The notes below the pieces were generated by a model. That model was given only the letters and a program-made list of their open reading frames with translations, did not search any database and was not told the origin of the DNA. A stretch of 64,000 nucleotides of DNA from Pseudomonas versuta (GTDB taxonomy: Bacteria > Pseudomonadota > Gammaproteobacteria > Pseudomonadales > Pseudomonadaceae): the NCBI RefSeq assembly GCF_001294575.1, contig NZ_CP012676.1, positions 4,792,001-4,856,000 on the forward strand, read 5' to 3'. The stretch's first letter is position 1, and every line of letters begins with the position of its first letter. Positions 39,582 to 47,156 of the stretch are shown one piece after another. Both the position numbers and the translations under genes were made by a program.

Positions 39582-41639
39582 ATGACCATAGCCAATACCG
39601 CTAAACCAATGGAAGGGTCGCGCAGTCGTTCGCAGATCATCGTGCTTTTTATCGCCCTGATCGTGTTCATCATGCTGTTGTTCGCCAACTTTGCTTACCT
39701 AAACACCCAGTCCAACTACGACAAGCAGTACATCAGCCATGCGGGCGAGTTGCGGGTGCTTTCGCAACGTATCGCCAAAAACGCCACTGAAGCCGCTGCC
39801 GGTAAAGCCGCTGCGTTCAGGTTGCTCAGCGATGCACGTAATGATTTCAGCCAGCGCTGGAGTTACCTGAAAAAAGGCGACCCGGCTACCGGCCTGCCCC
39901 CTGCGCCCCCTGCCGTGCACAAGGAAATGCAGGCGGTGCAACGCGACTGGGAGCAATTGCTGGATAACACCAACGCCATTCTGGCCAGTGAACAAACGGT
40001 TCTGTCGCTGCATCAGGTGGCTGCCACGCTGGCTGAAACCGTGCCGCAGTTGCAGGTCGAGTCCGAAAAAGTGGTCGAAATCCTCTTGCAGCGTGGCGCT
40101 CCCGCCAGCCAGGTAGTGCTGGCGCAGCGTCAGTCCTTGTTGGCCGAGCGTATTTTGGGCGCGGTTAACACGGTGCTGGCCGGCGACGAGAATGCCGCCC
40201 AGGCCGCGGGCGCCTTTGGCCGTGATGCCAACCGTTTCGGTCAAGTGCTCAACGGCATGCTGGAGGGCAGTGTCGGGCTGAGAATTTCTCAGGTCGAAGA
40301 CAAGGATGCGCGCGCCCGCTTGCTGGAAATCTCGGAACTGTTCCAGTTTGTCTCCGGTTCGGTGGACGAAATTCTCGAAACTTCACCGCAGCTGTTTCAT
40401 GTGCGCGAAGCCGCCAACAATATCTTCAGTCTGTCGCAGACCTTGCTCGACGAAGCCTCGACCCTGGCCAACGGTTTTGAAAACCTGGCCAGCGGGCGTT
40501 CGCTGGACATCATCGGCGGCTACGTACTGGGCCTGCTGGCGCTGGCGTCGATCATCCTGATCGGCCTGGTGATGGTGCGCGAAACCAATCGCCAACTGCG
40601 CGAAACCGCCGAAAAGAACGAGCGCAATCAAAACGCGATCATGCGCTTGCTGGACGAAATCGAAGACCTGGCCGATGGCGACCTGACCGTAACGGCCTCG
40701 GTCACGGAAGACTTCACGGGAGCCATTGCCGACTCGATCAATTACTCCATCGATCAGCTGCGCGGGCTGGTGGCAACCATCAACCTCACGGCGGGGCAAG
40801 TGGCAGCGGCAGTCCAGGAAACCCAGGCCACTGCCATGCAACTGGCCGAGGCTTCAGAGCATCAGGCGCAGCAGATTGCCGAGGCATCGGCAGCAGTCCA
40901 GCAAATGGCCCACTCCATCGATCAGGTCTCGGCCAACGCTTCCGAGTCTTCGGCTGTTGCCGAGCGCTCCGTAGCGATTGCCAACAAAGGCAATGAGGTG
41001 GTGCACAACACCATCCACGGCATGGACAACATCCGTGAGCAAATTCAGGACACCGCCAAGCGGATCAAACGTTTGGGCGAGTCTTCCCAGGAGATTGGCG
41101 ACATTGTCAGCCTGATTGATGATATTGCCGATCAGACCAATATCCTGGCCCTGAACGCGGCCATTCAGGCCTCGATGGCCGGTGATGCCGGCCGCGGGTT
41201 TGCCGTGGTGGCAGACGAAGTCCAGCGCCTGGCCGAGCGTTCTTCGGCTGCCACGCGGCAAATCGAAACCCTGGTGCGGGCCATTCAGGCCGATACCAAC
41301 GAAGCGGTTATTTCCATGGAGCAAACCACCACCGAAGTGGTGCGCGGTGCTCGCCTGGCACACGATGCCGGTGTGGCCCTGGAAGAAATCGAGGGAGTTT
41401 CGCAAAACCTTGCGGACCTGATTCAAAGCATTTCCAACGCCGCGCAACAACAAACCACCTCGGCGGCCCAGATTTCCCTGACCATGAACGTGATTCAGCA
41501 AATCACCAACCAGACCTCATCGGGTTCCACTGCCACCGCTGACAGCATTGGCAACCTGGCCAAAATGGCCAGTCAGCTGCGGCGTTCGGTGTCCGGCTTC
41601 ACCTTGCCTGCCACGCAAAAACCACGTGAGCCACAGTAA
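39582..41639 (+). CDS. pilJ: Methyl-accepting chemotaxis protein PilJ
   Basis: Chemoreceptor of 685 aa. An N-terminal transmembrane segment is at about residues 18-40, a large periplasmic part with two PilJ-type four-helix modules follows, and TM2 lies near residue 310-335 (IIGGYVLGLLALASIILIG). HAMP then leads to the signalling domain with the hairpin tip EIGDIVSLIDDIADQTNILA and AGRGFAVVADEVQRLAER. It senses surface contact or pilin in P. aeruginosa. Its stop overlaps the chpA start (TAATG); the methyltransferase gene pilK that should follow is absent. Confidence 0.95.
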   Translation: MTIANTAKPMEGSRSRSQIIVLFIALIVFIMLLFANFAYLNTQSNYDKQYISHAGELRVLSQRIAKNATEAAAGKAAAFRLLSDARNDFSQRWSYLKKGDPATGLPPAPPAVHKEMQAVQRDWEQLLDNTNAILASEQTVLSLHQVAATLAETVPQLQVESEKVVEILLQRGAPASQVVLAQRQSLLAERILGAVNTVLAGDENAAQAAGAFGRDANRFGQVLNGMLEGSVGLRISQVEDKDARARLLEISELFQFVSGSVDEILETSPQLFHVREAANNIFSLSQTLLDEASTLANGFENLASGRSLDIIGGYVLGLLALASIILIGLVMVRETNRQLRETAEKNERNQNAIMRLLDEIEDLADGDLTVTASVTEDFTGAIADSINYSIDQLRGLVATINLTAGQVAAAVQETQATAMQLAEASEHQAQQIAEASAAVQQMAHSIDQVSANASESSAVAERSVAIANKGNEVVHNTIHGMDNIREQIQDTAKRIKRLGESSQEIGDIVSLIDDIADQTNILALNAAIQASMAGDAGRGFAVVADEVQRLAERSSAATRQIETLVRAIQADTNEAVISMEQTTTEVVRGARLAHDAGVALEEIEGVSQNLADLIQSISNAAQQQTTSAAQISLTMNVIQQITNQTSSGSTATADSIGNLAKMASQLRRSVSGFTLPATQKPREPQ

Positions 41640-44600: not shown

Positions 44601-47156
44601 TTTGCCGAGGCCAATAACGCCCACGAAGCCTTGATCAACATGCTCGATCAGCTGGCTGCGGGACAAGAAATCACCCCGCAGCCGGTTCTGATCCAGACCT
44701 TGCACGACCTGTTGCATGAAGGTCTGGCGCCGGAGGCTACGGGCCTGATTCGCCGGGATGGCGACAGGACGCTCGACATTACCGAGCTGGGCGCTGCCAC
44801 CGCGCAGCTGGACGTCAGCCAGGGTGAGGCGAGCAGCATTGAGACTGACGCGGCCCAAGGCAATGGCGACCCCGAGTTGCAGGACATCTTCCTCGATGAA
44901 GCCTTCGACATTCTCGAGAGTTCGGGCGCGGCCCTGTTGCGCTGGCAAGCCGACCCGCAGAACCATCTGGAAGTCGAAAACCTGCTGCGCGACCTGCACA
45001 CCCTTAAAGGGGGCGCGCGCATGGTCGAGGTGGCCGCCATCGGCGACTTTGCCCACGAACTGGAAACCCTGTTTGAGGATATTTCCGTTGGTTTCCTGGC
45101 ACCTGGCGAGGACCTGTTCACGTTGTTGCAGCGCTGCCATGACCAGTTGGCGCAAATGCTTGATGCCTTGCGCAGTGGTCAGCCGCTGCCCTCGCCCCAG
45201 ACGCTGATCGAGCGTATCCGGCAGATCGAGCGCAGTGCCCGTCAACCGGCTCAGGCGGGCTCGTCGGCCAAGCCGGAGCCGGCTGGCGCGGCGGTGCCGG
45301 AGGGCGAGCGTACCGGGCTGGACACGGTCAAGGTGCCGGCCGAGCTGCTGGAGGACTTGCTCAACCTGGCGGGAGAGAGTTCGATCATCCGCGGGCGGGT
45401 GGAGCAGCAAGTCAACGATGCCCAGGTCGCCCTCAACGAAATGCAGACCACCCTGGAGCGGATGCACGATCAGTTGCGCCGGCTCGACAGCGAAACCCAG
45501 GGGCGCCAGCATAATCGTCAGCACACCGAGGGTGACGGGGTGGCCTACGATGAGTTTGATCCGCTGGAAATGGACCGTCATTCTCTGCTGCAGCAGCTGT
45601 CCCGGGCACTGTTCGAGTCGGCATCTGACTTGCTCGACCTCAAGGCGACCCTGGCTGCGCGCAATCGGGATGCCCAGGGCCTGCTGCAAAAGCAGGCGCG
45701 GGTGAACACCCAGTTGCAGGAAGGCCTGATGGGCACGCGCATGGTGCCGTTCGAGCGGGTGTTGCCGCGCCTCAAGCGGATAGTCCGGCAAGTGGCCGGC
45801 GAGTTGGGCAAGCAGGTCGATTTCAGGGTCATCAACGGCGAAGCCGAAATCGACCGTAACGTTCTGGAGCGTATGGTGGCGCCCCTCGAACACATGTTGC
45901 GTAATGCCGTCGACCACGGCCTGGAGCCTGCGCACATACGCCAGGCCGCAGGTAAGCCCGAGCAGGGGCTGATTACCCTTGAGCTGTCCCATGAGGGCGG
46001 CGATGTGGTGTTCGACATGCACGATGATGGCGCCGGCGTGCCGCTTGAGGCCGTTCGGCGCAAGGCCATCCTGCGGGGCTTGCTTGATCCGGCATCCAGC
46101 GTATCGGACCGTGATGTGTTGCAGTTCATCATGCAGCCGGGGTTTTCGACTGCAGAAAAAATCACCCAGATTTCCGGGCGCGGCGTGGGCATGGACGTGG
46201 TGCACGAAGAAGTGCGTCAACTGGGCGGCAGCATGACCATCGATTCGGTGGCCGGCCAGGGCGTGCACTTTCAAATCCGCCTGCCTTTCAGTGTGTCGCT
46301 CAATCGGGCCTTGATGGTGCAGTGCGCCGACGAGCAATACGCCATTGCCCTCAATACAGTCGAAGGCATTGTGCGGGTCATGCCCAATGAACTCGAAAGC
46401 TACTACCAGCTCAACCCGCCGCGGTATCACTACGGCGGGCAAACCTATGAATTGCGTTACCTGGGTGAATTGCTGCAAACCGTAGGCAAGCCCAGGCTAG
46501 CCGGTGAAAGCCATTCCGTGCCGGTGCTGCTGGTGCATTGCCAGGACCAGCGCGTGGCGCTGCAAGTCGATGCCCTGGCGGGCTCGCGGGAAATCGTGGT
46601 CAAAAGCCTGGGTCCGCAATTTACCGGGGTTCATGGCTTGTCGGGCGCGACCATTCTGGGTGACGGGCGAGTGGTGCTGATCCTTGATCTGCTGGCTTAC
46701 ATACGCGCCCATCAGGCGCGCCAGCCTTTGCTGCGGGCGCAACAGGAGGCGGTCGGCGCGCTGGAGTTCATCCCGGCGCTGCGTCCGCTACTGGTGCTGG
46801 TGGTCGACGACTCGGTCACTGTGCGCAAAGTCACCAGCCGTCTGCTGGAGCGCAACGGTATGAATGTAATTACCGCCAAGGACGGCGTGGACGCCATGAG
46901 CGTGCTCGAAGAACACACCCCGGACCTGATGCTGCTGGACATCGAAATGCCGCGCATGGACGGCTTTGAAGTTGCCACCCGCGTGCGTAATGATCCACGT
47001 CTCAAAGACCTGCCCATCATCATGATTACCTCGCGTACCGGGCAGAAACACCAGAACCGGGCCATGGCCATCGGCGTCAACGACTACCTGGGCAAGCCGT
47101 ACCAGGAGTCGGTATTGCTGGAACGCATCGCCTACTGGAGCAAACTCCATGCTTGA
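41639..47156 (+). pseudogene. chpA: ChpA, hybrid CheA-type kinase, frameshifted at 44597-44603
   Basis: Two frames make one protein of ~1838 aa. Frame one (41639-44617, 992 aa) has an N-terminal HPt-like domain (His48) and HPt domains at His669 (FHSLKGSGRM) and His806 (MHTLKGSAHM). It stops just after SERFF. The other frame continues to 47156 with FFAEANNAHEA, a further HPt (His ~1120, LHTLKGGARM), the dimerisation domain, the ATPase with RNAVDHGLEP and GRGVGMDVVHEE, a CheW domain and a C-terminal receiver (LMLLDIEMPRMDG, Asp ~1767). Removing one T from the T7 run restores the frame with a natural sequence. P. aeruginosa ChpA is larger (~2470 aa). All domains look undecayed, so this is either a recent mutation, phase variation or an error in the read. 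Confidence 0.85.
44597..44603 (+). other. T7 homopolymer at the chpA frameshift
   Basis: CGC followed by seven T and GCC. With six T the codons read Arg-Phe-Phe-Ala-Glu-Ala and the kinase is intact; with seven, translation stops four codons later at TAA 44615-44617. Confidence 0.9.

What the first reader, a model, noticed from the sequence alone, without database searches (positions are those of the whole stretch)
41639..47156. chpA is split by a one-base change in a T7 run while all its domains look intact
The long kinase reads continuously if the seven T at 44597-44603 are counted as six; with seven it stops at 44615. Both halves keep family motifs (HPt, dimerisation, ATPase, CheW, receiver) with no other lesion. 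This could be phase variation of surface sensing through a homopolymer, a very recent loss, a recoding event, or a read error. If real, strains could switch the Pil-Chp kinase on and off.
Basis: partly seen in the sequence, partly recalled or inferred. Interest (0 to 1): 0.8.

Follow-up and report, generated by a model that had tools for sequence, protein, structure and literature searches.

The report
Private frame break in chpA kinase
A large gene for a surface-sensing control protein is cut in two by a single-base frame change in this one bacterial genome, while near-identical copies elsewhere are whole, so it looks like a one-off recent mutation or a leftover sequencing error rather than an on/off switch.

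Summary
chpA reads as two overlapping frames (41639-44617 and 44535-47156), one base out of register, that meet at a seven-T run (44597-44603); no other lesion shows. The proposed phase switch is not supported. Nine full-length 1838-residue ChpA proteins (50 member sequences) differ from the window's two pieces by 1-10 of 1824 compared residues. Searches with each piece alone listed no near-identical separate piece (best 120 each). The run is not conserved: relatives carry T runs of 1 to 7 there. A/T runs of seven are common in this genome; mutS and mutL are whole. In about 296 kb compared with a 92%-identical relative, chpA is the only gene seen split over two frames. Best reading: a very recent, strain-private loss of chpA, with a residual consensus error not far behind; only reads can decide. 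Some full-length protein could leak through RNA-polymerase slippage, since T7 was the shortest T run on which E. coli polymerase measurably slipped, but nothing shows regulation. Interest is low.

The parts
41639..44617 (+). N-terminal piece of chpA (ORF A, 992 aa), three Hpt stretches; ends after the T7 run
   Evidence: ORF list; Pfam; 0-7 differences in 986 residues from nine intact near-identical proteins
44597..44603 (+). T7 run where the two reading frames meet, one base out of register
   Evidence: sequence; same place as the FF pair (residues 987-988) of intact ChpA
44615..44617 (+). premature TAA stop of ORF A
44640..47156 (+). C-terminal piece of chpA as it would be translated from the first in-frame ATG after the stop (838 aa); ORF B formally opens at GTG 44535, and a TTG at 44631 is also in frame
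   Evidence: weak SD-like GAAG at 44625-44628 read by eye in the letters; translation from here is inference
38151..38558 (+). response regulator (pilG by position; name recalled)
   Evidence: receiver-type NCBIfam matches, all shown below their cut-offs
38589..38978 (+). response regulator (pilH by position; name recalled)
   Evidence: receiver-type NCBIfam matches, all shown below their cut-offs
38989..39528 (+). CheW-like protein (pilI by position; name recalled)
   Evidence: PF01584
39582..41639 (+). methyl-accepting receptor (pilJ by position; name recalled)
   Evidence: receptor-type NCBIfam matches below their cut-offs
47149..47601 (+). second CheW-like protein (chpC by position; name recalled)
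   Evidence: PF01584; no NCBIfam match

Best explanation
This is a strain-private, very recent loss-of-function mutation: a one-base length change by replication slippage in a T run inside an otherwise well-kept chpA. It leaves an N-terminal array of phosphotransfer domains and, if translation restarts, a separate C-terminal kinase-receiver piece. The Pil-Chp pathway of this isolate would then be off or weak. Shown: the frame break, intact near-identical alleles, an isolated lesion in an otherwise clean stretch, and no stops in the pilus and secretion family matches tested. Inferred: that the base is really in the cell, and the loss of function.
For: Nine intact 1838-aa proteins differ from the window pieces by 1-10 of 1824 compared residues; P0125 by one. 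Both pieces show purifying selection against the nearest relative found: dN/dS 0.129 for A and 0.072 for B. In the stretch shared with relative G195 (91.8% DNA identity), 232 of 253 relative genes match one own gene over 90% or more, 7 have no match at 65% identity, 14 match in part. Of the 14, chpA is the only one split over two frames, one is a large-deletion difference, and 12 reach the C-terminus but differ at the N-terminus; for 3 of those 12 I checked family profiles, and they begin inside the shared part. In the reverse direction 240 of 266 own genes match in full, 19 have no match and 7 match in part, none split. So this assembly is not generally frame-broken. Matches of four pilus and type II secretion families carry no internal stops: PF00437 4 of 4, PF00482 6 of 6, PF04351 1 of 1, PF07963 8 of 8. 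chpA is listed as non-synonymously mutated in 4 longitudinal cystic fibrosis studies of P. aeruginosa (PMC8190622, passages). Shortened ChpA proteins of other species end or begin at many places, which fits sporadic loss.
Against: No reads are available; a single-base error in a T run is a classic consensus error (recalled) and would look the same. No second genome with this lesion was found. The frame check covers about 6% of the genome, cannot see breaks in the last tenth of a gene, leaves 9 of 12 N-terminal differences unexplained, and 5000 bases of the stretch are masked.
Confidence: 0.5

Rival explanations
1. Residual consensus error in the assembly: the cell has an intact chpA and the T run was miscounted.
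For: The lesion is a single-base change in a homopolymer, so far seen only in this assembly; an allele one residue away is intact. The P. aeruginosa chpA entry PA0413 is given in a 2021 paper's table as 'Still frameshift probable component...' (PMC8300626, passages), a reminder that this long gene has been called frameshifted before; the passages do not say why.
Against: Of the 245 other relative genes with a match, none was seen split by a one-base break, though a break in the last tenth of a gene would be missed. 21 other runs of 7 or more lie in called genes of the 324 kb, and no gene but chpA came up as split. The check covers about 6% of the genome.
Confidence: 0.36
2. Phase variation: the T run is a contingency tract that switches ChpA on and off at high rate.
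For: A homopolymer sits exactly at the break; if the base is real, both alleles exist in the species.
Against: Seven T is ordinary here. Relatives carry T runs of 1-7 at the site, mostly interrupted by C (31 of 74 TTTTTC, 20 of 74 TTCTTC). The nine near-identical proteins (50 members) are intact and no near-identical split product is among the 120 best listed for each piece. mutS and mutL are whole. A search for papers with chpA, 'phase variation' and 'type IV pilus' gave 0.
Confidence: 0.06
3. Leaky rescue: RNA polymerase slippage (or a ribosomal shift) on T7 makes a little full-length ChpA, enough for function.
For: In a reporter test E. coli RNA polymerase slipped on T7 at about 5% and not detectably on shorter T runs (PMC6260861, section 19 read).
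Against: The 5% figure is given with rescue by insertion; for deletions the section gives 10% on T8 and no figure for T7. In whole E. coli transcripts only 3 deletions (under 1%) began in homopolymers (PMC5574713, passages). A proven case uses a longer run, A11 in tssM at about 20% (PMC4256274, passages). Relatives do not keep the tract.
Confidence: 0.05
4. Functional fission: the two pieces are made separately and work in trans as a split kinase.
For: The break lies between Pfam Hpt stretches, B alone holds Hpt, dimer, ATPase, CheW and receiver, and an ATG follows the stop after 22 bases. Stand-alone C-terminal ChpA proteins of similar size are listed elsewhere, e.g. P0109 (949 aa, P. knackmussii B13) and P0116 (963 aa), which align from residue 900-905 on.
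Against: No split at this site was seen in relatives: 84 of 91 loci in one ORF, 7 cut near contig starts; near-identical copies are fused; the start signal is weak by eye.
Confidence: 0.03

Closest known systems
ChpA, hybrid CheA-type kinase of the Pil-Chp system (Pseudomonas)
   Same: Neighbours are two response regulators, a CheW-like protein, a receptor and a second CheW-like protein; multiple Hpt, dimer, ATPase, CheW and receiver domains; single-frame homologues in relatives
   Different: Here the coding frame is broken at the codons for residues 987-988; the near-identical protein has 1838 aa with four Pfam Hpt stretches, against at least nine Xpt domains in P. aeruginosa (PMC12632253, passages)
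Sporadic chpA shortening in other Pseudomonas
   Different: In 16 hand-picked cases alignment ends and starts scatter (N-terminal parts ending near 564, 748, 771, 956, 1025, 1099, 1194 on the 1838-aa scale). A few lie within about 40 residues of this break, but none was tied to this T run
Citrobacter tssM transcriptional frameshifting
   Same: A homopolymer close before a premature stop
   Different: A11, about 20% slippage, both products needed (PMC4256274, passages); here T7, no conservation, no sign of use

Membership tests
ChpA (Pil-Chp kinase) | Several Hpt domains plus H-kinase_dim, HATPase_c, CheW, receiver | tested here: met
   over the two pieces together
ChpA (Pil-Chp kinase) | Near-identical to a single-frame ChpA | tested here: met
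ChpA (Pil-Chp kinase) | One continuous reading frame in this genome | tested here: not met
Phase-variable (contingency) gene | Both tract lengths present in one population | not testable with these tools
   no reads
Phase-variable (contingency) gene | Tract conserved or longer than background | tested here: not met
Phase-variable (contingency) gene | Off alleles seen in other members of the species | tested here: not met
   no near-identical separate B or A among the 120 best listed of 2812 and 901 hits; nine intact near-identical proteins
Programmed recoding | Out-of-frame arrangement kept across relatives | tested here: not met
   84 of 91 in one ORF, the other 7 cut near contig starts
Pseudogene by recent frameshift | Lesion private, rest of gene unchanged | tested here: met
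   private as far as the collections searched show
Pseudogene by recent frameshift | Lesion present in the cell's DNA | not testable with these tools
   no reads

The most novel reading that the evidence does not exclude
In this species the T run lets chpA flip between whole and broken at a useful rate, giving mixed populations of surface-sensing and non-sensing cells, with slippage on T7 keeping a trickle of full-length kinase in the broken state.
Probability: 0.06. Interest if true: 0.65.

Novelty: new member of a known kind. Interest (0 to 1): 0.15.

Why it matters
If the base is real, this isolate is a natural Pil-Chp mutant and should not be used as a wild type for twitching or surface sensing. 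If it is an error, the record misstates a core regulator. Either way the finding does not show a new switch.

Tried and rejected
An ab initio frameshift finder (run on 4 of 21 stretches) was dropped: its calls were on the reverse strand and looked false, and it missed chpA, probably because a start codon follows the stop. The first ORF-versus-DNA comparison was swamped by antisense shadow ORFs and replaced by the coding-score filtered one. The count of non-triplet gaps gave 27 in 231,514 interior coding bases; by eye, with the gene positions, the others cancel with neighbouring gaps or lie within 150 bases of a 5' end, and the chpA gap is the only interior one that does not. One 258-aa ORF (19801-20577 of the joined stretch) has a cancelling pair 114 bases apart that I did not follow.

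Of one search's 20 stretches (400 kb of this chromosome), all 20 were used for codon training and 19 for run counts (the 20th overlaps the joined stretch); they had no frame check, as no matching relative DNA was fetched.

Considered and rejected: mutator by loss of mutS or mutL (both whole); general decay of the pilus machinery, at the level of the family matches tested.

In one search, 280 of 298 genus genomes (this one included) matched, and 30 matches became loci, one of them this genome. In one search, 74 of 109 loci given had an alignment over the site; 35 were dropped. Searches scored about 8000 candidates each and list 120. The organism was not identified beyond Pseudomonas. The names pilG, pilH, pilI, pilJ and chpC are recalled from gene order. 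PMC1698234 was not held.

Full report
What is there. The window is part of one 5.15-Mb contig of a Pseudomonas; the best named matches kept are Pseudomonas species, at up to 75% identity in the best segment. ORF A runs 41639-44617 and ORF B 44535-47156. The run of seven T at 44597-44603 is in the sequence. ORF A's reading of the run leads to TAA at 44615; ORF B's reading carries on the protein. Pfam puts three Hpt stretches on A and an Hpt, H-kinase_dim, HATPase_c, CheW and receiver on B. The neighbours are two response regulators, a CheW-like protein and a receptor upstream and a CheW-like protein downstream, the known Pil-Chp order (recalled).

Relatives. I compared both pieces with the ORFs of 91 loci (80 named, 11 unnamed). 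In 84 the best match of both pieces is one and the same ORF. Of the other seven, six ORFs run off the start of their contig and one (L035) begins 66 bases into its contig; none of the seven has a match to A. So no relative examined shows the split, and a conserved recoding is not supported.

Near-identical copies. Searching with the intact gene of the closest relative (L119, G195) returned nine 1838-residue proteins without stated source. Compared piece by piece and without gaps, they differ from the window by 1 to 10 of 1824 residues (986 of A, 838 of B); P0125 differs by one. By the listing they stand for 50 member sequences. Searches with A alone and B alone listed no near-identical separate piece: the highest identities among the 120 listed were 80% over 69% of A and 92% over 70% of B, a 585-aa protein. 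The tool says '-' in the source column marks proteins of the window; these nine are not encoded by the window as given, so I take them for masked near relatives of the same species; this is inference.

The tract. At the place of residues 987-988, 63 of 74 loci with an alignment code FF: 31 TTTTTC, 20 TTCTTC, 8 TTTTTT, 4 TTCTTT. The longest T run over the four codons there ranges from 1 to 7. One relative with seven T there (L094) is in one frame: the same gene in the longer locus L123 is whole. A/T runs of seven or more number 37 in 324 kb here and 34 in 296 kb of G195. Nothing marks this run as a special tract.

Is the assembly sound? In the stretch shared with G195, 232 of 253 relative genes match one own gene over at least 90% of length, 7 have no match at 65% identity, 14 match in part. 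chpA is the only one of the 14 split over two frames. One other, a YihG-type acyltransferase in G195, lacks about 370 bases here, so it is a second broken or differing gene, but not a one-base one. The remaining 12 match to within two residues of their C-terminal end and differ at the N-terminus. For three of the 12 I checked family profiles: all begin inside the shared part, so the extra N-terminal letters look like upstream DNA; nine were left. In reverse, 240 of 266 own genes match in full, 19 have no match and 7 match in part; none is split. Of 27 non-triplet gaps in 231,514 aligned interior coding bases, those outside the T run cancel with neighbours or lie within 150 bases of a 5' end (judged by eye). 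Leaving out chpA, which was the reason for looking, no interior one-base break was seen in the 245 other relative genes with a match. This favours an accurate consensus and so, mildly, a real mutation. It cannot settle one base.

Function. Both pieces show purifying selection against G195 (dN/dS 0.129 and 0.072). Matches of four pilus and type II secretion families elsewhere are free of stops; not all of these are type IV pilus genes, since one ATPase passes the GspE cut-off and one resembles TadA. A PilT-family ATPase in the window and a TfpB-type extension ATPase pass their cut-offs. mutS and mutL are whole. So the lesion stands alone as far as tested. In P. aeruginosa ChpA feeds PilG and PilH, and its receiver domain is needed for twitching (PMC12632253, passages); loss of the link between A and B should silence or weaken the pathway (inference). 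chpA is listed as mutated in four longitudinal cystic fibrosis studies (PMC8190622, passages). Slippage on T7 by E. coli RNA polymerase is at the limit of detection, about 5% in a reporter (PMC6260861, section 19).

Other broken chpA. Sixteen shortened ChpA proteins that I picked by hand from the hit lists, most of them on long contigs, end or begin at many places. Some C-terminal ones (P0109, P0116) align from about residue 900, so a free C-terminal half is not unheard of in sequence records; whether these are working proteins, losses or errors was not tested.

Literature. Searches for chpA with frameshift and twitching (11 papers), phase variation with homopolymer, Pseudomonas and type IV pili (25 papers, 20 listed), 'still frameshift' with chpA (4 papers), chpA with phage-resistant (3 papers), ChpA with Hpt, PilG and PilH (11 papers, 10 listed) and chpA with phase variation and type IV pilus (0 papers) showed, in the listings and passages that I saw, no report of a switch in chpA.

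Verdict. Real observation, ordinary cause: a one-off frame break, recent mutation (0.5) or consensus error (0.36), with switching at 0.06.

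Noticed in passing
L172 near 15107 (G000:C1 near 4931107) versus L154:13406-14503: A YihG-type acyltransferase gene of the relative G195 (365 aa) lacks about 370 bases in this genome, where a 145-aa ORF is left; possibly a second broken gene, direction of the change not resolved.
   Followed up: partly
P0006 and P0280 (P. reinekei), P0246 (P. silensiensis), P0270, P0326, P0109, P0116: Shortened or split ChpA proteins of other Pseudomonas, ending or beginning at different places: chpA may be lost or misread rather often in sequenced strains.
   Followed up: partly
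G000:C1:117881-119362 and 4333258-4334409: A pilC-like gene lies beside a pilin gene with no extension ATPase hit between them; of the four PF00437 hits, the one above a type IV pilus extension-ATPase cut-off is TfpB-like and sits elsewhere.
   Followed up: partly
joined stretch 19801-20577 (G000:C1 about 4731801-4732577): A 258-aa ORF has two cancelling one-base gaps 114 bases apart against G195.
   Followed up: no
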